Below are positions 1-47,605 of a stretch of DNA of 64,000 nt, piece after piece; position 1 is the stretch's first letter; every line of letters starts with the position of its first letter. The DNA is from Argopecten irradians (Eukaryota; Mollusca; Bivalvia; Pectinida; Pectinidae). The position numbers were made by a program, and so were the translations under genes. Location of the stretch: assembly GCF_041381155.1 (NCBI RefSeq), contig NC_091144.1, positions 18,299,544 through 18,363,543 of the forward strand, read 5' to 3'. The notes below the pieces were generated by a model. That model searched no databases, was not told where the DNA came from, and worked only from the letters and a program-made list of their open reading frames with translations.

Positions 1-1500
1 ATTAAAGAATACAACAGCTGAACTTATTGGTATATAATTGTAATGTGTTATATATCTAATACGTAAACACATCCACCATCACCACACATGATAAAATACG
101 ATATATGCGATATATACTCAATGGCTAGAACCCCTCCAAATTTCTGGAGAAATCCCTCCGCTAGAAATATCCCAGATATATTGATAAATCAATGCCAAGA
201 ACCATTTCAAACCATTAGATTAGATAAATAAATGCCGATAACCATCTCAAAAATATGGATAAACCAATTTCTAGACCAATCCCAATAGACTAGATAAATC
301 AATGTCTAGAACCATCTCAATAGAATGGTCAGGATAAATCATTGTCTAGAACCGTCCAAATAGACTAGATAAACCAATGTCTAGAACAATCCCAATAGAC
401 TAGATAAATCAATGCCTAGAACCATCTCAATAGACTGGTTGGGATAAATCAATGTCTAGAACCGTCCAAATAGACTAGATAAATCAATGTCTAGAACAAT
501 CCCAATAGACTAGATAAATCAATGTCTAGAGCCGTCCAAATAGACTAGATAAATCAATGACTAGAACAATCCCTATGGACTGGATAAATCAAAGCATATA
601 ACCATCACAATAGACTAGATAAATCAATGTCTAGAGCCGTCCAAATAGACTAGATAAACCAATGTCTAGAACAATCCCAATAGACTAGATGAATCAATGC
701 CTAGAACCATCTCAATAGACTAGTCAGGATAAATCAATGTCTAGAACCGTCCAAATAGACTAGATAAATCAATGCCTAGAACCATCATAAAGGACTAGAT
801 AAATCAATGACTAGAACAATTCCTATGGACTGGATAAATCAATGTCTAGAACCGTCCAAATAGACTAGATAAATCAATGTCTAGAGCCATCATAAAGGAC
901 TAGATAAATCAATGTCTAGAGCCGTCCAAATAGACTAGATAAATCAATGTCTAGAGCCGTCCAAATAGACTAGATAAATCAATGTCTAGAGCCGTCCAAA
1001 TAGACTAGATAAATCAATGTCTAGAGCCGTACAAATAGACTAGATAAATCAATGCCTCGAACTATCCCAATGGACTAGATAAATCAATGCCTAGAACCAT
1101 CATAAAGGACTAGATAAATCAATGTCTAGAGCCGTCCAAATAGACTAGATAAATTAATGACTATAACAATCCAAATGGACTAGATAAATCAATGCGTATA
1201 ACCATCCAAATGGACTAGTTGAATCAATGCCTAGATCCACCCGAATGGACAAGATAAATCAATGCCTAGATCCACCCCAATGGACTAGATAAATCAATGT
1301 CTCGAATCATCCCAATGGACTGGATAATTCAATGTCTTGAACCATCCAAACGAACTTGTTAAATCATTGCCTAGAAATACCCCAATGAACTGGATAAATC
1401 AATGCTTAGAACCATTCCAATAGACTAGATAAATCAATGTCTAGAGCCGTCCAAATAGACTAGACAAATCAATGACTAGAACAATCCCAATGGACTGGAT

Positions 1501-2064
1501 AGCCCGAGATACTCTGGCCCTGACACCAGACTTAGACATTATGACAGATAGATGTCTGGTTTAGGGCCAGAGCGCAGTAGTACTCGAAAACCTGGAATAA
1601 GCCGACACCGTTTGGTATCGGGCCAGGTACTCTCCGATTCAGACTGACCACCGAGAAGCACCACTAACCTTAGTCTATTCAACGAATGAATATCATATCT
1701 ACCCAAATATAGCAATCCGTCGAGATTAAAGATGATTTGCTTACTACGAGAAAATGGCGACGATGGCGAGGGATATTTAAAGTTGCGGAAAAGAAACTAC
1801 TGTGTTGACACAATAGATCGTGCATGCGTGATGAAATGGATGGGTATGAGTAGATAAATTATTCATTTGTTGAAAAGACCAAGGTAATTGGCGATTCTCG
1901 GAGGTAATATTTTGTAAGTAGTCTGAATCGGAGAGTACCTGGCCCGATACCAAACGGTGTCGACTTATTCCAGGTTTTCGAGTACTACTGCGCTCTGGCC
2001 CTAAACCAGACATCTATCTGTCATAATGTCTAAGTCTGGTGTCAGGGCCAGAGTATCTCGGGCT
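1501..2064. mobile_element. Non-autonomous DNA transposon with 145-bp terminal inverted repeats
   Basis: Positions 1501-1645 and 1920-2064 are inverted copies of each other with one visible mismatch. The ends read AGCCCGAGATACTC and GAGTATCTCGGGCT. The element interrupts the satellite array, and the flanking ATGGACTGGAT appears on both sides, compatible with a target duplication of 7, 9 or 11 bp depending on where the ends are drawn. The core of about 274 bp has no convincing ORF. Each terminal repeat also contains an internal hairpin built on CTCTGGCCCT/AGGGCCAGAG and ACCAGAC/GTCTGGT. Long inverted ends with a 9-11 bp duplication fit a Mutator-like (MULE) derivative, but other families are possible. 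Confidence 0.8.
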
Positions 2065-3430
2065 ATGGACTGGATAAATCAATGCGTATAACTATCCCAA
2101 AGGACTAGATAAATCAATGCCTAGAACCACCCCAATGAACTAGATAAATCAATGTCTAGAACCACCCCAATGGACTAGATAAATCAATGCCTAGATCAAA
2201 CCCAATGGACTAGATAAATCAATGTCTCGAATCATCCCAATGGACTGAATAATTCAATGTCTTGAACCATCCCAATGAACTTGTTAAATCATTGCCTAGA
2301 AATACCCCAATGAACTGGATAAATCAATGCTTAGAACCATTCCAATAGACTAGATAAATCAATGTCTAGAGCCGTCCAAATAGACTAAATAAATCAATTA
2401 TTAGAACTACCCAAATGAAGTGGATGAATCAATGCCTAGAACCATTCCACTAGACTAGATAAATCAATGTCTAGAACCATCCTAATAGACTATATAAAGC
2501 AATGTCTAGAACCACCCCAATGGACTAAATAAATCAATGTCTCGAATCATCCTAATGGACTATATTATATAAATCAATGCCTAGAACCATTCCAATAGAC
2601 TAGATAAATCAATGTCTAGAACCACCCCAATATACTAGATAAATCAATGCCTAGAACTATCCCAATAGACTAGATAAATCAATGTCTAGAGCCATTCCAC
2701 TAGACTAGATAAATCAATGTCTCTAATCATCCTAATGGACTATATTATATAAAGCAATGTCTAGAGCCGTCCAAATAGACTAAATAAATCAATTATTAGA
2801 ACTACCCAAATGAACTGGATAAATCAATGCTTAGAACCATTCCAATAGACTAGATAAATCAATGTCTAGAGCCGTCCAAATAGACTAAATAAATCAATTA
2901 TTAGAACTACCCAAATGAACTGGATGAATCAATGCCTAGAACCATTCCACTAGACTAAATAAATCAATGTCTAGAACCATCCTAATAGACTAGATAAATC
3001 AATGTCTAGAACCACCCCAATAGACTAGATAAATCAATGCCTAGAACTATCCCAATAGACTAGATAAATCAATGTCTAGAGCCATTCCACTAGACTAGAT
3101 AAATCAATGTCTCTAATCATCCTAATGGACTATATTATATAAAGCAATATCTAGAACCACCCCAATGGACTAAATAAATCAATGTCTAGAGCCATTCCAA
3201 TAGACTAGATAAATCAATGTCTAGAGTCATTCCAATAGACTAGATAAATCAATGTCTAGAACCACAACCATCCCAATGGACTAGATAAATCAATGCCTAG
3301 AGCCATTCCAATAGACTAGATAAATCGATGTCTAGAACTATTCCAATAGACTTGATAAATCAAAGTCTAGAGCCATTCCAATAGACTAGATAAATCAATG
3401 TCTAGAACCATTCCAATAGACTAGTTAAAT

Positions 3431-3800
3431 CAATGTCTAGAACGTACCATCCCAAAGGATTAGATAAATCAATGTCTAGAACCATTCCAATAGACTAGAT
3501 AAATCAATGTCTAGAACCATTCCAATAGACTAGTTAAATCAATGTCTAGAACGTACCATCCCAAAGGATTAGATAAATCAATGTCTAGAACCATTCCAAT
3601 AGACTAGATAAATCAATGTCTAGAACCATTCCAATAGACTAGTTAAATCAATGTCTAGAACGTACCATCCCAAAGGATTAGATAAATCAATGTCTAGAAC
3701 CATTCCAATAGACTAGTTAAATCAATGTCTAGAACCATTCCAATAGACTAGTTAAATCAATGTCTAGAACGTACCATCCCAAAAGGATTAGATAAATCAA
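3431..3800. repeat. 109-bp higher-order repeat inside the satellite
   Basis: The landmark AACGTACCATCCCAAAGG occurs at 3441, 3550, 3659 and 3768 (the last copy has one extra A), exactly 109 bp apart. Each block consists of three satellite monomers, one of them a variant carrying the extra ACGTA. This is recent local homogenisation at the right edge of the array. Confidence 0.85.
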
Positions 3801-3855
3801 TGTCTGTCTAAAACTATCCCAATGGACTAGATACAATGACTAGAACCATGATATC

Positions 3856-7137: not shown

Positions 7138-10100
7138 CTATTTACTATCCTTGTCTTTATCCTTTTTTCCATCTTCTTTTTTCCCAGAATCTTTTTGCAT
7201 TATAGAACTCATAGCATTCTGTATTGTTTCACTTTGAGGGTCTACACCAGGTAAATTTTCCAATACATTTTGTAGAAATTCTGGATCATTCATAACTTCA
7301 GAGTAATCTTCGTCGCTCTGAAAAATAGAAATTAAATGTAGCTTTGAGACAGATGAATATTGTGTTTAAATGCTCAGGTTGACACGTTATAACCAGAGAC
7401 TATGTGTTTCTATTTAATAATATTAAATGCCATAAAAATTAGTGCAAGATATTCACACACTGGATATAGAAGTATTTATTTACTCTACCAAGTCAGCAAC
7501 AAATTATTGTAGTAAACAAATACCAGTTACAGCATTTCACAATTCTTCCACTTTCTTTTGAAAGGAGACAAATCCTTATGACACATTACCTAAATGCTCA
7601 ATGAATATATCCAATGAATAAGAGGATGAAATTACACATAACCAAGACAAAGTTAAGAATGTTCAATATCACATACAAAATAGCTGATAAAAAAGTCTGG
7701 TTAGTAATAATTCACGCAAAAACTTTTTCATAAATTGTCATAATAAATTGAGAACTAGGGGCGATAAATTACAGATTTCCTCTATCACAGTTTTACATGA
7801 GTCTCTAATTTCGGTAATTACTTACAGGTTTTTTCTCCCCCTGTTCCGCTGCTCCAGCTTTGGCATCGTCGTCTACATCCATGGGTGCTGGAGTGTTCTG
7901 AGTGGTATTGGCAGCTAGTACAGAAACAACGGTAAATTCTAAATACAAACTGTATATTAACACAGTAAACAAGACTATCCATTAAAATTTAACTGACATT
8001 TATTACCTGACAATATAATTCATCTAAATATTATCTAAATGAACTAGAACTGTAACTTCAGCAAGCCAATTGCTAACTTATACCCTCCCTTAACCCCTAA
8101 TTTCAGACCAAGGCAAACAAATGTTTCTTCATCATGTGGCCATGAATGCCCATTACTGAAGCATGTGAAGTGTCAAACAATAGATATTCAGATGTTACAC
8201 CAATTGACAAAGTTTGAACAAAATTGATCAAAAAACTTATAAATAACATTTATATTGGCTATATTTCAAAACCTGTGCATAGTGACCTGGTTGCCATGGC
8301 AACCAAAACTTTTGGCAAAAACACCCTGCATACACATCTAAACATGGTTCCCAACATCGCTGTGAAGTGCCATATATAACTAGCTAACAACATACCAGAA
8401 TTTGCTAATGACATCTGCATGGCGTAAGCTATCTGCTCTTCCTCAGACATGGAGCCAAAGTCAGGTACACTAGGTGTTGGGGCCTGCTGCTCGGCATCTG
8501 GCTGCATGGACATGGCCAGGGCCTGTTCCAACATCGCCTCGTCTGAGGTACCTGTCATAAATATAGTACAGGGAATTGATAGAAGCCTGGATTAATAAAA
8601 GTGAAAAAAAAAATCAAGATGATATCCAAAATCTATCTATGACTACCGTCAACAAAACAATCTTTTTTTCTTCTTCATTTTTTTTTTTTTTTTAATTTTT
8701 GTCTGACATTCTCGCTTGTACATGAATATAATAAAAAACTAGAAATATGTCTGTTAGACATTAAGTGCTCGCTAACTACTTCCTAACCTTAATTTCCAGT
8801 ATGAAATAATCCTCGGTAACAGGTGTCCCCGTGTACATAGCACTTTCGCTCATTATCTCTGGGACTATTGCAAGGAGATGGTTTACACCCTTGGTGTATT
8901 ATAATAGATACATTCCTTTACTTCATCAGAACTTTGAATGTGAAATACCTTTGAACTTTGTTAAGTGTGTTCTTTGTTACATAGAAGCGTGTTTATTATT
9001 ATATAGATATTGATACGATAGACTCAAGACTTGATTCGCTGTTCAAAATAGTCGTCCGCTAGAACACTGTCTAGTCTCTGTGCACATGGTGACTCACCTG
9101 TGCCACGCTTGAACGCCTTTCTGGGGTACATTAGATCTAGAGCTCAGACACCCAGACTGATATTTTATATTGTCTTTTTTTGTTTCACTCGTATGATAAT
9201 GCGCTTCACAATGCGTCTATATTTATCGACTATTTGAACCTTTTTAATACATCATCGGTGAGGTGCTTGGATTTCTTGAGCGATACAAGCGTTTGTATGT
9301 TTATACGCTTCCAGTTCCATAATCCTTTATCGACTATTTAACCTTAATGCACATTGGTGTACAAAATCGGCGAGGTGCTTGAATATATAGAGAGTTGCAA
9401 GCGTTTTTATGATTATACGCTTCCAGTTCCAAACGTATTTTTGTGATAAGTGTTTAATCCAGGTACGTTCTTGATTACTGACAATTGCATATGTAAATCG
9501 TTGCAAAAGAGTTAATATTTAATTTATGTTTATGAAATCATAAGCTGTGTATGTAACCATAAGCCAAAGACCAACAGAATATAGTTATTCAATACGTAGA
9601 TCTCACTTCCGGTATTTCATGCGCACTAGGCATAACGGATGTACACAGACTCTACACACGACAAGGAAAACAATAGGGCGAGCGTACTCTGCTCGCCCTA
9701 AAAACAGGCAAATAAGCATTTGATGGATTTGAAATGAGTGACATTTACTGATTATCTGCTTCTCCATCAACTGTTTGTTTTATAAGATCCATTACCTCCA
9801 GCTGCAGTTGTTTCCATGCTCTGTACTTGTCCTTCCTCTGGGGCTGGAGCTGTTTTCTTTGCCTCATCTTCTTGTCTTGCTCTCTGCTCTTCCATAGACA
9901 CTCTCAAAGCCTAGGGTGATAAAGAAATAGTGTCTATGTGAATAGTAAAACATTAAAAGGACAATTCACAATAAAAATAATTAACGTTTTGTTTGCAAAA
10001 AATAATACAATGTATTTTATAAATATTTTCTTATGATATGTTGTGATTTATCATCTGACTAACCCATGGTATATATTGATTCAGAATCTCTAAAACAATT

Positions 10101-13833: not shown

Positions 13834-15693
13834 TAAGATAAATTCTATCACAGCAACTGAATTATCATACCTTGACATGGTCAATAGACCAACATTATTT
13901 TCTGGATTTGCTCGTGTCTTTGAGTGGCAAACAAGGTTGACTGCATCCTGCTGTGCCTGTAGTCGTGTTGGAACAAAATCACCATTTCTCATGTAATCGC
14001 TGTTGTCAACACTGCAAATGAAATAACATCATTTTATTATAGTGGAATAGTCACACAAAGGAAGGCTATAGCTAAAGTCGGTTAAAGTGAACAGTCGGGC
14101 AAGGATGGCTAAAGTCGGTAAAAATGGTGTGAATGTATCCAGTATAATTTCTTATGAAATGGAAAAATAAAATCTCTCGCCAAAATCTGTCTGCGTACGA
14201 AGAAAGTAATTTAAAGTATAGGAATCCTAATACGTCCTCCCGGCTGACTATGTACGTGGTTACATTTACACGCAGCCTCGCTTTCAATACTTTCAACTTT
14301 CCTTTACTTTAATGGTCAGAACTGGGAAACATAGAACTTGGCCGTTGTATTAATATGTGAGAACTTTTGGAAGGCCAATGAACGCATTTAGACTGGTTTT
14401 CTTTGCCCGACTATTCACCTTAAAGTGGTGCGAATACATTGTATGTGTGTGTATATCCAGTATAATTCCTTATGAAATTGAAAAATAAAACATCCCCCAA
14501 AATCACTCTGTATGCGAATAAATTCATTTATAATATATGAATCCTAAAATGTTTTCCGGTCTGGATATGACCATGGTACTGCCTACTGGTTACATTTCCA
14601 CGCAGCCTGGCTTTCAGAGAGTTAGGCAAATTTATATTTAGAACTGTGCTAAATTTACACTAGGCTTTTCCATTATTTCAATGGTCAAAACTGAACAATA
14701 AACCGTCGTTTTGATGTGTAAGGACTTTTGGAAGGCCGATGAATGCATTTAGACAGGTTTCTTTGCCCGACCATTCATTTTAAAGATGCATGCTCAGACA
14801 GAGCATAAAGGAATAAAACGATACCCATGGTCTAACTAACAAAAAAATGCATAAAAAATAATTCATTTGCTTCTATGCTTAAGCAATAAGTACTTAATTA
14901 ATTCCATATCAGTCCATTCATACAGTAACAAAGGCCAAGGCCAATTAAGCTCTGCCCACTGGTGGTGTAACTTTGGTGGTTTGAATTAGCTTTGTATTAC
15001 TGTACATTAATCTTTTAATCTTTAATAAATGATTTCTTCCTAATTTTCTGACCTATCCTTAGATGTCATACACCAAAATCACTAGGAAATAGGATAGTTT
15101 CAGAGGGTCCCGGGTTCGAATCCCGGTCTGGCCGCTACATTTTCTCCTCTCCTGTTACATCTCAAAGGAAATAAAGTTTTAAGTTCACAGCTAAAAAGCT
15201 CATTAATAATCTCATTGAAAGACTTAAGTCGAGGAATAAAAAGACAAAGACTCGCTGCAGTCCGTCTCAGGGAGAATGGATCCTGTATACGTATCATCAG
15301 ACTTTATCCATTCTGGAAATTTAGTCAAAATGTAATTTTAATATTATTTATCAGTTTTGACCATGCATATTGGTATACAGATACACGTATAACTGTCACA
15401 TAGCCCTACATTTGAGAGATAAATATGTGCATTTAAATTCAATATAAGATATGTATAAATACGAAAATTCAAACGATTTTCTAATGTCAAAATTTGTCTA
15501 TTTCGCTTTGTCATCACACAAAATGTGAACTTATTTGTAGTTCGCTGAAAACATTTAGAAATTTTGACTCAAAATAACATCTTCCGTAAAATACACCGAA
15601 AAAACTGATTGGAAGAATTATTGTTTCAACCAAATTGTGCTATTAGAAATATTTTAATTTTGCTTACCACACAATCGTACTTTCAAGCACCAT
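7138..15693 (-). CDS. PSMD4: 26S proteasome non-ATPase regulatory subunit 4 (Rpn10), 11 coding exons
   Basis: This is a ubiquitin receptor of the 19S particle that captures polyubiquitinated substrates. Exons on the minus strand are 15693-15668, 14011-13871, 12908-12797, 12482-12396, 11493-11425, 10999-10938, 10478-10325, 9910-9796, 8551-8396, 7914-7826 and 7317-7138. All introns are GT-AG, and the exons sum to 1191 nt in one frame, giving 396 residues (human about 377). The N-terminus [20 protein letters not shown] starts a VWA domain running to about residue 190. Ubiquitin-interacting motifs are near 212-231 ([14 protein letters not shown]) and 290-306 ([13 protein letters not shown]). A further UIM-like stretch with LEQALAMS lies near 258-273. 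The tail is lysine/aspartate-rich (KKDKDKDSK), as in the family. The start matches the family exactly. It is transcribed divergently from RCCD1. Introns contain MITEs, a SINE-like repeat and an (AT)n run. Confidence 0.96.
9214..9435. repeat. Tandem duplication of about 110 bp in PSMD4 intron 8
   Basis: Two diverged direct copies share TTATCGACTATTT, CGGCGAGGTGCTTG (CGGTGAGGTGCTTGG in the first), CAAGCGTTT and TTATACGCTTCCAGTTCCA. They lie in the intron between the exons at 9910-9796 and 8551-8396. The rest of this 1.2-kb intron shows no gene. Confidence 0.75.
9674..9700. repeat. Perfect 10-bp-stem hairpin
   Basis: TAGGGCGAGC and GCTCGCCCTA are exact inverted copies separated by a 7-nt loop, inside PSMD4 intron 8. 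It could be a remnant of a small palindromic element. No function can be assigned. Confidence 0.7.
11705..12010 (-). mobile_element. SINE-like dispersed repeat, inverted and partial copy
   Basis: Read on the minus strand, this stretch aligns by eye with 31785-32335. Shared landmarks on the plus strand here include TTTGGGAGACTG, CAGAAACTACCACTTT, GTGTGTCTTAGCCAGGG and AACCCAGA. It lies within PSMD4 intron 4, opposite to the other copy, and lacks the head. No protein is encoded. Confidence 0.65.
13500..13595. mobile_element. Small inverted-repeat element in PSMD4 intron 2
   Basis: AAGACCCACCACC and GGTGGGGGTCTT form inverted arms, flanked by TGCAAATAAGA and GAGCTTATTAGCAG. The short palindromic structure and lack of an ORF suggest a MITE. 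The boundaries are approximate. Confidence 0.4.
13799..13828. repeat. (AT)n microsatellite
   Basis: About 14 TA dinucleotides in PSMD4 intron 2, about 45 bp downstream of the exon 2 donor on the gene strand. Confidence 0.9.
14082..14424. mobile_element. MITE, TTTAAAGTGAA family (copy 2)
   Basis: This is nearly identical to the element at 5969-6316 in sequence and orientation, with left end TTAAAGTGAACAGTCGGGC and right end GCCCGACTATTCACCTTAA. It sits in PSMD4 intron 1, about 70 bp upstream of the exon 2 acceptor. The high similarity to copy 1 suggests fairly recent activity. Confidence 0.8.
14420..14784. mobile_element. MITE, TTTAAAGTGAA family (copy 3, diverged, abutting copy 2)
   Basis: Directly after copy 2 the same body recurs (TATATCCAGTATAATTCC, ACTTTTGGAAGGCCGATGAA) with more substitutions and an extra stretch around 14610-14660. 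It ends in TTTGCCCGACCATTCATTTTAAA. Its left terminal repeat is reduced, so copies 2 and 3 form a head-to-tail dimer sharing one boundary. Confidence 0.75.
15100..15140 (+). other. tRNA-like T-arm (B box), probable SINE remnant
   Basis: CCGGGTTCGAATCCCGG forms a perfect 5-bp stem with a 7-nt T loop, followed by a 7-nt acceptor-like strand TCTGGCC. No matching 5' acceptor strand, D arm or anticodon arm is seen upstream, so this is not a tRNA gene. It is probably the B box of a decayed tRNA-derived SINE in PSMD4 intron 1. Confidence 0.45.
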
Positions 15694-15934
15694 CTTGGAA
15701 CGATTTGGTGATCTGACAACACTGGTTTTTGATTGGCTATTAAATTCGTGAGAAAAAAAATATTTTGCTGTTGAATCAATAAATGATATAATAGTGTTAT
15801 TTTGTTACAGTTTTGAACTTTGTTTATTATTTCCATGGGTAATTTAATTAAAAGGATAAAAGAAAAATGTATTTTATGCGTTCCTGAATTTTTGGATAAA
15901 CTAAAATTAAAAACGACGAGTTGGATTTCCGACA
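15694..15934. promoter_or_regulatory. Shared divergent promoter region of PSMD4 and RCCD1
   Basis: Only 241 bp separate the two start codons, so this stretch must hold both 5' UTRs and promoters, unless further 5' exons exist. GATTGGCT at 15731-15738 is an inverted CCAAT box relative to RCCD1 and a forward one (AGCCAATC) for PSMD4. No clear TATA box is present. The arrangement suits a bidirectional housekeeping promoter; this is inference from spacing and one motif. Confidence 0.6.
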
Positions 15935-18900
15935 ATGGATGTTGATGTGTGGGGCGCTGGATTTAATGGATTCAAACAAATTTCAGAACAATATAGGCAT
16001 GGCAGTGTTGTTTCGGAACCACAAATGATACAAACAACTTGCTGCATTTTAAACATCACCCTGTCTTGGTCGCAACTGGCACTTATTGATGGTAACATAA
16101 CATGTAACAACAACTATGTAGTCTTGCTCATGTCCCTACATTGGTTGAAAAAGTAAATTAACAGTGATAATCCCTTTAGTCAGTTTTATAAATGAAGGAG
16201 AAAAAAAAAGTGATTGACAGAAAAAAAAATACAAAAATATTTTCCGAACAAATAAATAAATTAGATGAAGTATCAATTTATCTATTTTTTGTTTAATGTT
16301 TTAACTATTAAATTTGCATAAAAGTTTTACATATACAGTACAGTAATCAATGACTGATCGCCAGGTGTAATATAGCCACGCCTTGTGCTCACAAACGCAT
16401 GTGTTTCTATTCAATGTCGGAGCAAACATCGTGGCACACACAATACAAAATACAAAGTCACGTGCGGTTTGATTGACAGCTAGCGATCCGTCAATTTGTT
16501 TAGTGGTGTGAAGTGTGATTATTATGTCATTTGTATAAATGAGTATATGGACTATGATCTGAATATAGAGGCACGCATATATATATATAGTGCCTACAAT
16601 TTCAGAATAATCTAAATTAAACTAAATATGTAATTACCCTTGAAGGACCAATATTCGTCAGGGTAATCAAATTTTCCGTATATCAACAAACCAGCAAGAA
16701 ATAAAATGTACCAATTTATAATTAATTACTTTGTACTTTAATTTGTTAATTTGTAAAAGTATGAAATTTTGACCAAATTATATTTCATTTAATTGAGTGC
16801 ATGCCACCTTCAATTTTCTCAATTTAAATTTTCAAAGCATTTTAAATTACTACGTATATCAACAAACCAGCAAGAAATAAAATGTACCAATTTATAATTA
16901 ATTACTTTGTACTTTAATTTGTTAATTTGTAAAAGTATGAAATTTTGACCAAATTATATTTCATTTAATTGAGTGCATGCCACCTTCAATTTTCTCAATT
17001 TAAATTTTCAAAGCATTTTAAATTACTACTTATACTTCAGGTATACTTACATTTTATTGAAAATTATTTTTTATTGAAGGGAATGGGAAAATCATCACTT
17101 CACCATTTAAAGCAGAAAAAAATGAGACTTTAAAAAGCGGAGAAAATCAGCACAATGAACATTTTACTTGTAGGAGTTTAACATGTTTAAATGACCAGAT
17201 ATTGGCTCTACTCAGTGACGGAAGTGTCCAGATACTAACAGAGTCACACAGTATGAAGACTGTGAAGTATACTGAAAGAGATGTCAATCAAAGGAATGAT
17301 GTAGATAATAAACACCAGACAAGTCCAGCTTCAAGTGTAAAGAGTATCCATGGTACAGATAAAGAATTATTTTTCCTTGAAGGTTTGTGACAATTACTAC
17401 TGTAACAAATATTTATCATTGATCTTCAACTGATGCCAAAGTCTAAACTCATGAGAGCTAGATTGTATTATTTTATTTTAAGATATAAATCAGTTCTTGC
17501 TTTAATAATTTGTAATGATATGTTAGGGGTGAGTGTTTGATTGGCATGGAGTTATTATTTAAGTATGGCACAGTTTGTGTGGACTAGCTGAAATATGTTA
17601 AAGCATTGATGTCACTATATTCTTATTTCATGGGGGTATGAAAGAAATTTTGTTTGCAAACTATGCACGAATCAGCAATAAACATGCAAGTCTTTTTGTT
17701 ATAACATAGTACATTTTAACCAAAAGGTAATATTGTTTTATTATAAATAATAAATAAATGTATTAAAATAAATATTATAATAGTAAGATATTATGTTATG
17801 TAGTTTCAGGAACACTCAGCAGTTGCATTCTCACACACCTTGATACTGAGACCTGGATTATGTCCCCTTTAATGCCTGTGTTATGTGCTGAACCAATTGT
17901 ATCAGTGAGCTGTGGAAAGGAGCATGTGCTTCTACTAGGCAAGAACAGACAGATTTACTCCTTTGGTGGAGGCAGGTACGTACAACTTCTCACAGATCAG
18001 GCAGTAACAGTAATGGGGGGAGGTAGGTAAGTACAACTTCTCACAGATCAGACAGTAACAGTAATGGGGGGAGGTAGGTAAGTACAACTTCTCACAGATC
18101 AGGCAGTAACAGTAATGGGGGGAGGTAGGTAAGTACAACTTCTCACAGATCAGGCAGTAACAGTAATGGTTGGAGGTAGGTAAGTACAACTTCTCACAGA
18201 TCAGACAGTAACAGTAATGGGGAGGTAGGTAAGTACAACTACTCACAGATCAGGCGGTAACAGTAATGGTTGGAGGTAGGTAAGTACAACTTCTCACAGA
18301 TCAGACAGTAACAGTAATGGGGGAGGTAGGTAAGTACAACTACTCACAGATCAGGCAGTAACGTAACAGTAATGGTTGGAGGTAGGTAAGTACAACTTCT
18401 CACAGATCAGACAGTAACAGTAATGGGGGAGGTAGGTAAGTACAACTTCTCAAAGATCAGGCAGTAACAGTAATGGGGAGAGGTAGGTAAGTACAACTTC
18501 TCACAGATCAGACAGTAACAGTGATGGGGAGGTTGGTAAGTACAACTTTTTACAGATCAGACAGCAACAGTAATGGGGAGGGGAGGTAGGTAAGTACAAC
18601 TTCACACAGATCAGGCAGTAACAGTAATGGGGAGGGGTAGGTAAGTACAACTTCTCACAGATCAGGCAGTAACAGTAATGGGGGAGGTAGGTAAGTATAA
18701 CTTCTAACAGATCAGACAGTAACAGTAATGGGGAGAGGTAGGTAAACTTCTCACAGATCAGACAGTAACAGTTATGGGGGGAGGTAGGTAAGTACAACTC
18801 TCACAGATCAGACAGTAACAGTAGTTGGGAGGTATAGGTAAGTACAACTTCTCACAGATCAGGCAGTAACAGTAATTGGGAGAGGTAGGTAAACTTCTCA

Positions 18901-21900
18901 CAGATCAGACAGTAACAGTTATGGGGGGAGGTAGGTAAGTGCAACTTCTCACAGATCAGACAGTAACAGTAGTTGGGAGGTATAGGTGAAGTACAACTTC
19001 TCACAGATCAGACAGCAACAGTAATAAAGAGGGAAGGTAGGTAAGTACAATTTCGCACAGATCAGACAGTAACAGTGATGGGGAGGTTGGTAAGTACAAC
19101 TTCTCACAATCAGACAGTAACAGTAGTTGGGAGGTATAGGTAAGTACAACTTCTCACAGATCAGGCAGTAACAGTATGGGGGGTAGGTAAACTTCTCACA
19201 GATCAGACAGTAACAGTTATGGGGGGAGGTAGGTAAGTACAACTTCTCACAGATCAGACAGTAACAGTAGTTGGGAGGTATAGGTAAGTACAACTTCTCA
19301 CAGATCAGGCAGTAACAGTAATGGGGAGAGGTAGGTAAGTACAACTTCTCACAGATCAGACAGTAACAGTGATGGGGAGGTAGGTAAGTACAACTTCTCA
19401 CAGATCAGACAGTAACAGTAATGGGGAGGGGAGGTAGGTAAGTACAACTTCTCACAGATCAGGCAGTAACAGTAATGGGGAGAGGTAGGTAAGTACAACT
19501 TCTCACAGATCAGACAGTAACAGTAATGGGGGGAGGTAGGTAAGTACAACTTCTCACAGATCAGACAGTAACAGTAATGGGGAGGGGTAGGTAAGTACAA
19601 CTTCTCACAGATCAGGCAGAAACAGTAATGGGGAGAGGTAGGTAAGTACAACTTCTCACAGATCAGACAGTAACAGTGATGGGGAGGTTGGTAAGTACAA
19701 CTTTTTACAGATCAGACAGCAACAGTAATGGGGAGGGGAGGTAGGTAAGTACAACTTCTCACAGATCAGGCAGTAACAGTAATGGGGAGGGGTAGGTAAG
19801 TACAACTTCTCACAGATCAGACAGTAACAGTGATGGGGAGGTTGGTAAGTACAACTTCTCACAGATCAGACAGCAACAGTAATAAAGAGGGGAGGTAGGT
19901 AAGTACAATTTCGCACAGATCAGACAGTAACAGTGATGGGGAGGTTGGTAAGTACAACTTCTCACGATCAGACAGTAACAGTAGTTGGGAGGTATAGGTA
20001 AGTACAACTTCTCACAGATCAGGCAGTAACAGTTATGGGGGGAGGTAGGTAAACTTCTCACAGATCAGACAGTAACAGTAGTTGGGAGGTATAGGTAAGT
20101 ACAACTTCTCACAGATCAGGCAGTAACAGTAATGGGGAGAGGTAGGTAAGTACAACTTCTCACAGATCAGACAGTAACAGTGATGGGGAGGTTGGTAAGT
20201 ACAACTTTTTACAGATCAGACAGTAACAGTAGTTGGGAGGTATAGGTAAGTACAACATCTCACAGATCAGGCAGTAACAGTAATGGGGAGAGGTAGGTAA
20301 ACTTCTCACAGATCAGACAGTAATAGTTATGGGGGGAGGTAGGTAAGTACAACTTCTCACAGATCAGACAGTAACAGTAGTTGGGAGGTATAGGTAAGTA
20401 CAACTTCTCACAGATCAGGCAGAAACAGTAATGGGGAGAGGTTGGTAAGTACAACTTTTTACAGATCAGACAGCAACAGTAATGGGGAGGGGAGGTAGAT
20501 AAGTACAACTTCGCACAGATCAGGCAGTAACAGTAATGGGGAGGGGGAGGTAAGTACAACTTCGCACAGATCAGACAGTAACAGTGATGGGGAGGTTGGT
20601 AAGTACAACTTCTCACAGATCAGGCAGTAACAGTGATGGGGAGGTTTGTAAGTACAACTTCTCACAGATCAGACAGTAACAGTAGTTTAGAGGTATAGGT
20701 AAGTACAACTTCTCACAGATCAGACAGCAACAGTAATGGGGAGGGGAGGTAGGTAAGTACAACTTCTCACAGATCAGACAACAACAGTAATGGGGAGAGG
20801 TAGGTAAGTACAACTTCTCACAGATCAGACAGTAACAGTAATGGGAAGGTAGGTAAGTACAACTTCTCACAGACCAGACAGTAACAGTAGTTGAGAGGTA
20901 TAGATAAGTACAACTTCTCACAGATCAGACATTAACAGTAATGGGGGGTAGGTAAGTACAACTTCTCACAGATCAGATAGTAACAGTAATGATGAGGTAG
21001 TTAAGTACAATTTCTCACTGATCAGGCAATAAATTAATGGGGAGGTATGTACACAATTTAAGTACAACTTCTAACAGTTAGAGCAGTAACAGTAATGGGG
21101 AGGTATGTACACAATTTAAGTACAACTTCTAACAGTTAGAGCAGTAACAGTAATGGGAAAGTAGGAAATTATAGTGAAGTAACGTAAATCAAAGTACAAC
21201 TCCTTACATTTATTGGTTTGAGAGGAGGATGGGGGACAGGATGTACAACTTTGAGGCCAAAAGAGGTTATTCTCTGATGAGAAAAACGAGTTTTTGTTTT
21301 TATCCCCTGCCCATCGAAGTTGACGGGGGATATACAAATGGGTTCCGTCCGTCCGTCCGTCTGTCCGTCCGTCTGTCCGTCCGTCTGTCCGTCCGTCTGT
21401 CTGTCCGTACGAAAGGTTTCCGGAGCATAACTCTAAAACCAGTAGAGATATTTCCACGAAACTTCATACACACATTGGTCTTATGGTCTAGTAGTGCCTT
21501 TTGCTATTTTTAGGTTTTCTTTTTTTTGCATTTTTTCCGTAACCATGGAAACATTGCTGAAAATATCATATTTTTGTACCAGGTTCGTTTCCGGAGCATA
21601 ACTCTAAAATCAGAAGAGATATTTCCACGAAACTTCATAGACACATTGGTCTTATGGTCTAGTAGTGTCTTTTGCTATTTTAAGGTTTTCACTTTTTGTA
21701 CTTTTTTCTGTTACCGTGGAAACATTGCTGAAAATGGCAGATTTTTGTGTAAGAATCGTTTCCGGAGCACAACTCTAAAACCAGCAGAGATATTTCCATG
21801 AAACTTCATAGACACATTGTTCTGATGGACTAGTAGTGCTTTTTGCTATTTTTAGGTTTTCATTTTTTGCACTTTTTCCGTAACCATGGAAACATTGCTG

Positions 21901-24624
21901 AAAATATCATATTTTTGTACCAGGTTCGTTTCCGCAGCATAACTGGAAACCGGTTGAGATATATGCACAAAACTCCATAGGCACATTAGTCTTATGGTCT
22001 AGTAGTGCCTTTTGCTATTTTAAGGTTGTCACTTTTTGTACTTTTTTCTGTAACCATGGAAACATTGCTGAAAATGGCAGATTTTTGTGTAAGAATCGTT
22101 TCCGGAGCACAACTCTAAAACCAGCAGAGATATTTCCATGCAACTTCATAGACACATTGTTCTTATGGTCTAGTAGTACCTTTTGCTATTTTTAGCTTTT
22201 CACTTTTTGTGCTTTTTTCTGTAACCATAGAAACATTGCTGAAAATATCATATTTTTGTAGCAGGTTCATTTCCGGAGCATAACTTTAAAACCAGCAGAG
22301 ATATTTCCACGAAACTTCATAGACACATTCTTTTTATGGTCTAGTAGTACCTTTTGCTATTTTTAGGTTTTCATTTTTTGCACTTTTTCCGTTACCATGG
22401 AAACATTGCTGAAAATATCATGGTAAATGGTAAATGTTACTTTGCAAAACTCCACCCATCTTTGTGTATATAGTCTAATATAAATGTCAAGGCTGTATAC
22501 CTGATTCAACAATTGCAGCCCCGCTCTACTTGAATTATACTCCATCTTTCTTTAGCTCAACTTCCTTTTTCCTGTTTTTTTTCATACACATAAGTCTCCA
22601 CAATCAAACTTACTTCAGCTTTGATATCTCCATTGGCGGGGGATCTGAATGACTATGTCCTTGTTGTTTTTTTGTTTAAAGTTTCTTGAACTGACTGTAG
22701 ATAGGAAAACTAATGATTCTTTAATTTGAGAAATATTTTGATTCACAAAAATGTCAGTCAACAATTTATGTAGCTATCTTACCAAGGTATGTACTTAGCA
22801 ATCAGATCAGTTGAAATAAAACTCATGTAATTTTGCATTTAGATGTCAATTTTATGACAGCTAGTATTTTTTCAGTCGTGGACAGTTGGGTCATGGAGAT
22901 GTTGTTAGCCGCAAACAGCCACAGTTGTTGGAGGCACTTGCTGGTGTGGCTTTCACTTCAGTGGCAGCAGGAGGATGGCACTCTGTGGCATTATCAGGTA
23001 GAAAGTTCTTAATGATAATCAGAAAATGAAAACAGCTTTCTAAATTAAATATACCTGTGATATGTACAGAAATATAACTTCAAAATCAATTTTAGTCAAA
23101 TTTAAAGTTAAAATGTTGTCATCATTATATGTAAATTCAATTTCAAATGAGATGATCATGGATTACAATTGGTAATGGCATATGCCGTTGAATGTTGTGC
23201 ACATTGTTGTATTTTTATTTCATTTCAAAATATGTTGTTAAATTCAAAAGATTTTAATTTTGACATTGATTTGGCAGCAGGCAAATCATATATATTTATA
23301 TACGCCGACCCTCTCTATAAATTCTACATTGTTGTATGAATACATGTGTGTGTTTATACTATAGGACTGTATACTCTGAAATGATTTTCCTGGATTTATA
23401 AGGAAATTGTAGAATGTTGTTATTAATTTTCTAACACCATTTTTACAATTTTGTACATGAATGATTTACCCTTTCCCTGCTGTAGATATTGGAGATGTAT
23501 GGGTCTGGGGATGGAACGAGAGTGGTCAACTTGGATTACCATGTGGTGGGAGCAATAAGAAACTCCTCATGGACATGTCTATAGACTCAGCAAACACAGA
23601 TACTGGGGAAAGCACTGATGGAGAAAAAAGTGGAGTGCAAAAAACATTCACTAGTAATCTGAATTCTGAACCCATCAAAGACTCTTCTTCAGCAATAAAT
23701 ATCCATGATTCAGATGAGAACCAATCAGCTCAAAGAACACATACAGACCCCATTTCAGAGACGTCATCAAACACTACAGCAAATTCCATTGGTTCCCCAT
23801 CTCCCCATTCAAAACCATTAGACAGTATGGAGAGCCATGTGTATGTCCAGAATTGTGATGTGTCCCATGTACAAGTCCAGAGTGAACCTTGTGGCCTTGA
23901 CCTTTTAGATGTCACAGCCACTCAGATCAGCTGTGGATCTAGACACACTGCACTTTTAACAGGTGACAAGATCTACTTAATGTTACAGTATTAATTGATA
24001 TTTATTTTAATTTTTTTTTGGGGGGGACAACATCTTTGATATAATTGATGGAAAATTGGATTAATATCAAGTTTGCATGCTAGTGATCTTCTTGATTTCT
24101 CAATCTTTAAGAAGCACTTTCTTTATTATTCTGTATGTAGCACTTTTCTAGGCAAAAGTACATATTGTTTCATATTTTTCAGCTTTTGAAAATCAAACTT
24201 TTGCATGTAGTCTTTAAATCATTTTACAGGGCAATATCGATATATGTGCATAAAGAAAATAGTGTATAATACTCTGCATTAATTTATCAAAACCATTTGT
24301 AGTTACATATACCTGGTATCTGTTTCAGATTAACCTGGTGAAAATATTCCATATCTAAAAGGTGTAACTAATATATAATGATACTTTCCAGGTTCCGGTG
24401 TTGTGTTAACATGTGGATGGAATAAGTATGGACAGTTGTGTCATGGTGATACTCTCAACAGAGACTTTCTCCAGTCTGTCAACCTGTTTGTAAAAGAGAA
24501 ACTTAAAGTGACAGATATTTACTGTGGTCAGTGGAATACAATTATCATCACTGAAAACAAAAGACATGCAATTAATGTGGATACCAGGGAAACATTATCT
24601 CACGGGTGTCTATCTTCACACTGA
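15935..24624 (+). CDS. RCCD1: RCC1 domain-containing protein 1, 6 coding exons
   Basis: Exons are 15935-16091, 17080-17382, 17810-17975, 22876-22997, 23486-23962 and 24392-24624. All are GT-AG with consistent phases and sum to 1458 nt, giving 485 residues (human about 376). The start MDVDVWGAGFNGF resembles the family N-terminus. Propeller signatures follow: CGKEHVLLLG, SFGGG joined across intron 3 to RGQLGHGD, AAGGWHSVAL, VWVWGWNESGQLGLP (about residues 254-268), CGSRHTALLTG and CGWNKYGQLCHGD. The extra length comes from a polar Ser/Thr-rich insert at about 275-370 inside a propeller blade and from part of exon 2. Human RCCD1 partners KDM8/JMJD5 and acts in chromatin and mitotic chromosome stability (established knowledge). 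Intron 3 carries a large minisatellite. It is divergent from PSMD4. Confidence 0.93.
16677..17028. repeat. Exact 176-bp tandem duplication in RCCD1 intron 1
   Basis: 16677-16852 and 16853-17028 appear identical by eye, both starting CGTATATCAACAAACC and ending TTTTAAATTACTA. The duplication ends about 50 bp before the exon 2 acceptor. Such identity indicates a very recent event or an assembly artefact. Confidence 0.9.
17976..21160. repeat. About 50-bp minisatellite starting at the RCCD1 exon 3 splice donor
   Basis: Roughly 60 units of 45-54 bp begin at the exon 3 donor and fill most of intron 3. The consensus is GTAAGTACAACTTCTCACAG, then ATCAGACAGTAACAGTAATG, then GGGGGAGGTAG. Each unit holds a consensus 5' splice site (GTAG|GTAAGT) and a 3'-splice-like CTTCTCACAG. 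Units from about 20940 onward are more diverged. The complement stays open because many units are multiples of 3 long, giving runs of a PHYCYCLICEKLYLPTS-like peptide; those are not genes. Confidence 0.95.
21296..22430. repeat. Dispersed repeat with CCGT-rich head and 170-bp internal tandem units
   Basis: The head reads TTTTTATCCCCTGCCCATCG and TGACGGGGGATATAC, followed by a (CCGT/CTGT)n stretch at about 21345-21410. Then come about six units of 168-172 bp, each containing TTTCCGGAGCATAACTCTAA, GAGATATTTCCACGAAACTT, CTAGTAGTGCCTTTTGCTAT and CCATGGAAACATTGCTGAAA. This head is a common interspersed repeat in molluscs; the ORFs across it are unsupported. It lies in RCCD1 intron 3. Confidence 0.8.
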
Positions 24625-24716
24625 TAATTAAAATATTTTTAATTTAGGTAAAGTGCTATTTTCATTGAAGTAAAAAAAATGCATGGCATTTTATAGAAAT
24701 GCAATGCAATTTATAG

Positions 24717-24722
24717 AATAAA
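24717..24722 (+). promoter_or_regulatory. Poly(A) signal AATAAA of RCCD1
   Basis: AATAAA lies about 93 nt after the RCCD1 stop codon, the first canonical signal downstream. It predicts a short 3' UTR. Confidence 0.6.
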
Positions 24723-24729
24723 ACAGAAA

Positions 24730-25450
24730 TTGCAGGACTTTTGATTGGTTCCCCCAGAATTTTTAAATGGCCAGACATGTTCCACTGTTATTGTATCTTG
24801 ACAGAAAGAGTAAAAAATATAAGGGAATACGGTAGTACTAATAAATATAGAAAATATTCCATATGTTTGTACATTATACGTATAGATTATCCATATTTAA
24901 CAATTAAATTGTCATGGTTTAAGTCAAAAAGATGCTTGAAAAGTTGGGAAATGAATGTCAAGGGACATAACTCTGTAATACCTATGCCTTAGTTTGTACA
25001 TGAACATTGAAGAAAGACATTACCAACATCATGAATTCCATCTGCATCACTGTATTTACGAAAAAAAAAAATAGTTGATGAAAACACCACTTTCTTGTGG
25101 GAGAAATAAACAAAAAGCACAGAATGACTTTATTTTACCATTTACTATATATACTAATTATTTTTCATATTTTTAACTTGAAGTAAAATTAGAAGCTCAA
25201 ACTTCTCAATGGTGGTAATGGTGTAAAGTAAGTAGCTTTTGTAACTGAAGAAAATACTTAATAGTCTGCTCCTGTTTTTGATGATGAAAAAATACCATTT
25301 GTCAGCGGTGGAGCATTTTTAAGAAAAACCTTAGTTTATATTTTATGATATATGACAACTAATCACAGAAAATGTTCTGTGATCATCGAATATGAAATTA
25401 TGATGAAATGGCAAGAAAAGGTACCGTTTTTTGATCGATGAAAAGCTTCT
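24730..25450. other. Spacer, nothing recognised
   Basis: AT-rich sequence downstream of RCCD1. No supported ORF, RNA gene or repeat structure is seen. Confidence 0.6.

Positions 25451-47562: not shown

Positions 47563-47605
<43 letters not shown>

What the first reader, a model, noticed from the sequence alone, without database searches (positions are those of the whole stretch)
17976..21160. Minisatellite built from a splice donor: about 60 reiterated 5' and 3' splice-site motifs in RCCD1 intron 3
The array starts exactly at the exon 3 boundary (GGAGGCAG|GTACGT), and its units carry the same junction in improved form (GGAGGTAG|GTAAGT). Each unit also holds a 3'-splice-like CTTCTCACAG 20 nt after its donor. 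It appears that the exon-intron junction itself was amplified, leaving dozens of consensus donors downstream of a weaker true donor. This could sequester U1 snRNP, produce isoforms, or make splicing depend on array length.
Basis: partly seen in the sequence, partly recalled or inferred. Interest (0 to 1): 0.75.

Follow-up and report, generated by a model that had tools for sequence, protein, structure and literature searches.

The report
Splice-donor minisatellite ("mirage") in RCCD1-like gene
The border between one exon and its intron has been copied about 63 times into a repeat array, leaving dozens of copies of the "cut here" signal; several other genes of this animal show the same thing, which offers a natural experiment on how cells choose where to splice.

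Summary
The array is real: 17968-21157, 63 copies of a 51-bp unit. Its first unit holds the last 8 nt of exon 3 and the true donor (GGAGGCAG|GTACGT) of a 485-aa RCC1-repeat (RCCD1-like) gene. Of 62 downstream donor-like sites, 50 pair better with U1 than the true donor. The unit was found only here in the 846-Mb genome, but the architecture recurs. Of 24 donor-motif arrays examined, this one included, 9 begin inside an exon with protein homology, 8 abut a plausible exon, 6 do not, 1 could not be judged. Triplet-array hits equal about 18% of occurrences for two donor 8-mers, 2-7% for five control words and 0.9% for one acceptor word. The kind is known: amphioxus "mirages" (PMC3087553, PMC3902484), human IFI6, and human minisatellites at exon-intron boundaries (PMC2812944). 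Best reading: a junction duplication, spliced out from the first donor. Its scale and donor bias, in a genome that looks protostome, are the newer part.

The parts
15935..16091 (+). exon 1 (coding part) of the RCC1-repeat (RCCD1-like) gene
   Evidence: joined exons 1-6 give an open 485-aa protein; RCC1 repeats 2.2e-30
17080..17382 (+). exon 2
17810..17975 (+). exon 3; ends GGAGGCAG, whose 8 nt are the start of array unit 1
   Evidence: a Pfam RCC1 repeat (aa 201-248) spans the exon 3/exon 4 junction
17976..17981 (+). true 5' splice site GTACGT (U1 duplex -9.3 kcal/mol)
17968..21157 (+). minisatellite, 63 copies of a 51-bp unit GGAGGTAG|GTAAGTACAACTTCTCACAGATCAGRCAGTAACAGTAATGGGG; least diverged at the exon side (5.1% in the first ten units, 14.5% in the last ten)
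18019..18032 (+). second donor (GGAGGTAG|GTAAGT); its use would add 51 nt = 17 aa in frame (502 aa)
21001..21157 (+). degenerate 58-bp variants at the far end of the array
21344..22421 (+). TCCG tract and 171-bp x 5.9 array in the same intron, no donor motif in its consensus
22876..22997 (+). exon 4, joined to exon 3 across the 4,900-nt intron 3
23486..23962 (+). exon 5
24392..24624 (+). exon 6, coding part to the stop

Best explanation
The array is a mirage-type minisatellite. A local tandem duplication once spanned the end of exon 3 and the first ~43 nt of intron 3, then expanded to 63 copies. The first copy still contains the real exon end and the working donor, so splicing from that donor to 22876 removes the whole array and leaves the protein unchanged; the array is tolerated for that reason. 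The other donors are passive copies. Leakage into them should be small. Donor 2 would give an in-frame 17-aa insertion, and later donors bring an in-frame TAA (AGG TAA) that should send the mRNA to decay. SHOWN: the architecture, the gene model, the position of the true donor in unit 1, the stronger copies, the coding consequences, and the recurrence at other exon ends of this genome. INFERRED: the duplication history, first-donor use, and the fate of leaky transcripts.
For: Array and phase. Unit found only at this locus: 29 of 29 reported matches lie in it (the tool calls such counts lower bounds), so no dispersed element was seen. The same architecture occurs at other exon ends: DENND11, 50 exonic nt in the unit (Pfam 7.6e-14); TSP1, 43 nt (4.3e-16); ANKRD13_C, 16 nt (1.4e-9); ADAMTS-5-like, 14 nt (PDB 5e-8); UreF, 33 nt (5.3e-5); agrin LamG, 26 nt (6.6e-5 for the whole chain); biliverdin reductase A, 28 nt (8.5e-4). 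Exon test over 22 other donor arrays: Fisher p 3.6e-8, against p 0.41 for 21 points 450 nt upstream and p 0.34 for 32 edges of arrays without the donor motif. Amphioxus mirages are reported to splice regularly.
Against: No RNA evidence of any kind. 50 of 62 downstream donors pair better with U1 than the true one, which on affinity alone predicts leakage; in human IFI6 repeat donors are used. Only 8 exonic nt (7 of 8 matching) tie the RCCD1 unit to the exon; at this locus alone, an array that happened to abut the exon is not excluded. 6 of 24 examined donor-motif arrays show no clear exon at their start, 1 could not be judged, and 8 rest on an acceptor and open frame read by eye.
Confidence: 0.7

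Rival explanations
1. Functional multi-donor array: several of the first units are used as alternative donors, as reported for human IFI6, giving a 17-aa insertion isoform (donor 2) and decay-prone transcripts (donors 3 and later) whose share depends on array length.
For: Most downstream donors are stronger by U1 pairing (-11.9 for the commonest form against -9.3). Donor 2 is in frame and open because unit 1 reads TAC where the other units read TAA. IFI6 uses two downstream repeat units as donors (PMC4526556 passage). Human minisatellites at exon-intron boundaries can alter splicing (PMC2812944 passages).
Against: No extra conservation of the donor within the array (rank 25 of 51). Amphioxus mirages are reported not to disturb splicing. 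A 51-nt open stretch is not unlikely by chance.
Confidence: 0.3
2. Chance abutment: an ordinary intronic minisatellite whose unit happens to contain GTAAGT expanded up to the exon, and the splice donor slid into its first unit.
For: The genome is rich in minisatellites. Only 8 exonic nt match at RCCD1. 6 of 24 donor-motif arrays have no clear exon at their start.
Against: Exon signals recur at the starts of donor arrays beyond controls. At six other loci with homology 26-50 nt of coding sequence are in the unit. The exonic GGG of RCCD1 lies inside an RCC1 repeat, so it was there first.
Confidence: 0.12
3. Regulatory decoy: the reiterated donors titrate or park U1 snRNP on the nascent transcript, which protects it from premature polyadenylation or tunes exon 3 definition.
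For: 62 extra donor-like sites in one intron.
Against: No selection signature on the donor. One intron cannot plausibly titrate an abundant snRNP (general knowledge, not tested).
Confidence: 0.06

Closest known systems
Amphioxus 'mirages' (Adh3, globins BflGb6/BflGb9, troponin C, PGBD5)
   Same: Minisatellite-like tandem repeats of an exon-intron boundary; many units keep AG/GT; unit size in the same range (Adh3 10-72 bp). Read as passages in PMC3087553 and PMC3902484; the original Adh3 paper (PMC117041) is not held.
   Different: Here 63 copies, against 6 and 3 in the two BflGb6 haplotypes; arrays recur at several genes; bias to donors over the one acceptor word tested (BflGb6 is an acceptor-side mirage). 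The genome looks protostome rather than cephalochordate, without proof.
Human IFI6 (6-16) splice-donor minisatellite, Turri et al. 1995
   Same: [quoted passage not shown] passage in PMC4526556).
   Different: In IFI6 downstream repeats are used in mRNA; here use is unknown. The paper is not held, so unit and copy number were not compared.
Variable internal tandem repeats at exon-intron boundaries of human segmental-duplication genes (PMC2812944, passages)
   Same: Minisatellites (about 30-bp units) at exon-intron boundaries; 27 intron modifications reported.
   Different: There about 4 copies on average, with repeats kept in or spliced out and novel introns formed; here a long array downstream of a donor that lies in unit 1.
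Intron gain by tandem duplication of AGGT-containing exon sequence
   Same: Local duplication that copies splice signals (PMC4974935, search listing with start of abstract only).
   Different: Here the unit includes intron sequence beyond the donor; no evidence of a new intron.
Introners / intron-generating transposable elements
   Same: Multiply splice signals in a genome (PMC9860276, search listing only).
   Different: No dispersed copies of the unit found; the arrays with exon homology carry their own gene's exon end.

Membership tests
mirage minisatellite (amphioxus type) | tandem repeats span an exon-intron boundary | tested here: met
   array 17968-21157 includes the last 8 nt of exon 3 and the true donor
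mirage minisatellite (amphioxus type) | many repeats keep AG/GT splice signals | tested here: met
   42 of 63 donor-like sites are exact AG|GTAAGT
mirage minisatellite (amphioxus type) | regular splicing of the mRNA is not disturbed | not testable with these tools
   no RNA data; the spliced reading 17975/22876 restores an RCC1 repeat
mirage minisatellite (amphioxus type) | length instability among alleles or somatic cells | not testable with these tools
   one assembled haplotype; a single copy of the locus found
mirage minisatellite (amphioxus type) | occurs in a cephalochordate | tested here: inconclusive
   GC 32-37% in seven stretches; two guanidino-kinase exons (of five fetched and 19 found) were sent to the PDB: nearest are taurocyamine and arginine kinases, creatine kinases far behind in one and absent at the cut-off in the other; species unknown
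IFI6-type multi-donor minisatellite | downstream repeat units are used as donors in mRNA | not testable with these tools
   needs RNA
introner / transposable element | dispersed copies of the unit across the genome | tested here: not met
   29 of 29 reported matches at this locus (the tool says counts are lower bounds)
recursive-splicing (ratchet) site | pyrimidine tract and AG directly before the donor GT (definition recalled) | tested here: not met
   the stretch before TAG|GTAAGT is G-rich in the units listed (by eye)

The most novel reading that the evidence does not exclude
In this genome 5' splice sites are preferred seeds of minisatellites. Hundreds of genes carry arrays of tens of near-identical strong donors that begin inside the exon, while acceptors are rarely amplified. 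Mirages would then be a genome-wide, donor-specific process outside cephalochordates, driven by a mutational bias at donors or by the fact that a first-copy donor makes such arrays harmless.
Probability: 0.5. Interest if true: 0.78.

Novelty: new member of a known kind. Interest (0 to 1): 0.57.

Why it matters
Such an array puts tens of near-identical 5' splice sites in a row behind one exon, here mostly stronger than the true one. RNA from one animal would show directly whether cells take the first, the strongest or the nearest donor, a question usually studied with constructs. The donor-over-acceptor bias, if it holds, links minisatellite birth to splice sites and bears on how introns and isoforms arise. 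Gene-prediction programs may also misplace exon ends at such loci.

Tried and rejected
Selection on donors: donor 8-mer variation within the RCCD1 array is average (rank 25 of 51), so no support. Dispersed repeat: not seen. Structured RNA: no Rfam match at gathering thresholds in 15500-25000. 3'-splice motif as half of a mini-exon: considered; 20-nt spacing, left as incidental. Generic excess of exons at array edges: 32 edges of arrays without the donor motif gave Fisher p 0.34, though 4 of 32 had p below 0.05; two arrays (L041 48-bp, L053) lack the exact motif in their consensus and so appear in both the donor set and the control set. The four flanks of GAAGTATG arrays (L069-L072) were meant as a matched control, but only L072 gave edges, and of other small repeats; so arrays of a control word were not tested for exons. 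Acceptor amplification: TTTTCAGG is in triplet arrays less often than its reversed control (0.93% against 2.2%); only one acceptor word was tried. Species: no COX1 match in the assembly; a paper search by assembly size found nothing. PDB gave no match at E up to 1 for the exons of L049, L064 and L062 and only E 0.1 for L061. NCBIfam, a prokaryote library, gave nothing for the gene. Papers opened on this question without a matching case: PMC4039745 (C. elegans intronic minisatellites, passages), PMC6823432 (passages), PMC12783039 (passages).
Full report
OBSERVATION. Tandem Repeats Finder reports 17968-21157, period 51, 63.0 copies, score 4166. The consensus unit is GGAGGTAG|GTAAGTACAACTTCTCACAGATCAGACAGTAACAGTAATGGGG. 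The array starts 8 nt inside exon 3. The script found 63 donor-like sites: 42 are exact AG|GTAAGT, and 43 exact CTTCTCACAG motifs are present. So about 60 donor motifs is right; the acceptor-like motif is exact in only 43. AGGTAAGT occurs nowhere else on the + strand of the window, and twice on the - strand.

GENE. Six exons on the + strand (15935-16091, 17080-17382, 17810-17975, 22876-22997, 23486-23962, 24392-24624) join into an open 485-aa protein with RCC1 repeats (Pfam PF00415, 2.2e-30; best stretch aa 201-248). The fragment across exons 3-5 matches RCC1-fold structures such as UVR8 and HERC2. The best RCC1 repeat spans the exon 3/exon 4 joint, so 17975/22876 is the natural junction.

DONOR STRENGTH AND CODING CONSEQUENCE. 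U1 duplex energies (ViennaRNA, U1 end recalled) are: exon 1 -5.0, exon 2 -6.8, exon 3 -9.3, exon 4 -8.0, exon 5 -8.1. The array donors range from -12.4 to -5.1; the GGTAG|GTAAGTAC form, found 31 times, scores -11.9; 50 of 62 beat the true donor. Donor 2 adds 51 nt in frame (502 aa). Each of the eight later donors printed stops at 226 aa because AG|GTAAGT reads AGG TAA in this phase; unit 1 reads TAC there. The donor 8-mer is no better conserved among the 63 units than other windows (rank 25 of 51). Divergence from consensus rises from 5.1% in the first ten units to 14.5% in the last ten, so the exon side is the most homogeneous end.

ONLY HERE, BUT NOT ALONE. The unit is found only at this locus (29 of 29 reported matches). 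The own-genome pattern search for three AGGTAAGT copies 30-60 nt apart gave 5038 forward and 4645 reverse hits, against 498 and 559 for the reversed word. I then read the starts of 24 donor-motif arrays: this one; two (L039, L041); 10 of the 11 clusters that I count by eye among the first 100 places of the period-51 search (L048-L057; C10:2239574 not fetched); and 11 of 13 AGGTGAGT clusters on C1 0-41.3 Mb, also counted by eye (L058-L068; a GT-rich cluster at 40521912 and an inverted copy at 30361783 left out before fetching).

EXON EVIDENCE AT THOSE 24. Nine have protein homology at E below 0.05: this one; L048 biliverdin reductase A (8.5e-4); L050 DENND11 (7.6e-14), L052 TSP_1 (4.3e-16) and L054 ANKRD13_C (1.4e-9); L056 ADAMTS-5 (PDB 5e-8; Pfam Reprolysin only 0.066); L059 agrin LamG (6.6e-5 for the whole chain; its best single stretch is not significant, and Pfam gives 0.012); L063 UreF (5.3e-5) and L068 Oscp1 (0.024, below its cut-off). 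Eight have an acceptor and open frame ending at the first donor by eye, with no or only weak homology: L039, L049, L058, L061 (GLUT3, 0.1), L062 (DUF885, 0.18), L064, L065, L066. Six have no clear exon: L041, L051, L053, L055 (a 28-nt candidate, p 0.037), L057, L060. In L067 the array start was not reached. The exonic part of the unit is mostly copied faithfully, for example 43 of 43 nt (L052), 47 of 50 (L050), 43 of 44 (L068), 26 of 26 (L059), but only 26 of 33 (L063) and 7 of 8 here.

STATISTICAL TEST. Acceptor score plus open frame against dinucleotide shuffles: over 22 arrays (all but this one and L067) Fisher p is 3.6e-8; 8 of 23 (this one included) have p below 0.05. Points 450 nt upstream: 1 of 21, Fisher p 0.41. 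Edges of arrays without the donor motif: 4 of 32, Fisher p 0.34. The automatic choice of exon differed from my reading by eye at L050, L058, L064 and L065 at least, so the test supports exons in general rather than each model. The acceptor frequencies are recalled approximations.

PREFERENCE FOR DONORS. Triplet hits over all occurrences: AGGTAAGT 9683/52563 = 18.4%; AGGTGAGT 4982/27765 = 17.9%. Control words: TGAATGGA 1057/45462 = 2.3%; GAAGTATG 1978/28710 = 6.9% and GTATGAAG 2229/36032 = 6.2%; TGAGTGGA 1130/16647 = 6.8%; GGACTTTT 637/29363 = 2.2%, and acceptor TTTTCAGG 433/46538 = 0.93%. Hits are weighted by array size: one array (C2:63613001) makes up 58 of the 100 places listed, and none of the first 100 AGGTGAGT sites listed lies in an array that one search lists. 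Counting clusters by eye: AGGTGAGT 13 in about 1355 occurrences, GAAGTATG 8 in 2297, TTTTCAGG 15 in 12830; donor against GAAGTATG p 0.018 (0.032 without the GT-rich cluster), donor against acceptor p 5e-7; about 266 AGGTGAGT arrays extrapolated. The excess over control words is thus large in hits but modest in cluster counts, and only one acceptor word was tried. Part of it may come from the high minisatellite density and from true donors being a large share of these words.

WHAT IS KNOWN. Amphioxus mirages are minisatellite-like tandem duplications of exon-intron boundaries in Adh3, globins, troponin C and PGBD5, said not to disturb splicing; length and somatic instability is reported for some (passages of PMC3087553; PMC3902484). 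In human IFI6, repeats are used as donors (passage of PMC4526556). In human segmental duplications, minisatellites at exon-intron boundaries account for 27 intron modifications and can form novel introns (passages of PMC2812944). I saw no genome-wide report of donor-seeded arrays in the listings; most of those papers I know only from the listing, and only open-licence papers are held.

WHICH ANIMAL. Unknown. GC is 32-37% in seven stretches and the assembly 846 Mb; Branchiostoma at about 41% GC and 0.5 Gb is recalled, not tested. Of 19 guanidino-kinase matches, five exons were fetched and two searched: the nearest structures are a taurocyamine kinase and arginine kinases, with creatine kinases much weaker in one and below the cut-off in the other. 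This leans to a protostome and away from amphioxus, without proof.

VERDICT. The array is a real and clear mirage-type minisatellite: a new member of a known kind. The functional claims are open. The larger lead is that this genome seems to make such arrays at many donors.

Noticed in passing
window 16677-17034: A 176-bp segment duplicated head to tail at 99% identity just upstream of exon 2, apparently recent.
   Followed up: no
window 212-3849: A 35-bp array of about 102 copies without donor motif (71% matches).
   Followed up: partly
window 21344-22421: TCCG tract followed by a 171-bp x 5.9 array in the same intron; resembles a mobile-element tail (impression only).
   Followed up: no
window 47563-47603: Uninterrupted run of 41 G.
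   Followed up: no
window 17935-20924, - strand: Several overlapping open frames of up to 151 aa across the array on the - strand, probably a by-product of a stop-poor repeat.
   Followed up: no
G000 C1:30128460 and C1:30361783 (L065): The same AGGTGAGT array occurs in opposite orientations 233 kb apart, suggesting an inverted duplication or an assembly artefact.
   Followed up: no
G000 C2:63613001-63619320 (L051): Very homogeneous 51-bp AGGTAAGT array of more than 6 kb with no exon recognised at its start.
   Followed up: partly
L042 (C1:5000000-5009999): This arbitrarily chosen 10-kb stretch consists mostly of five minisatellites, two of which (8173-8934 and 8943-9951) have units that look like reverse complements of each other.
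   Followed up: no
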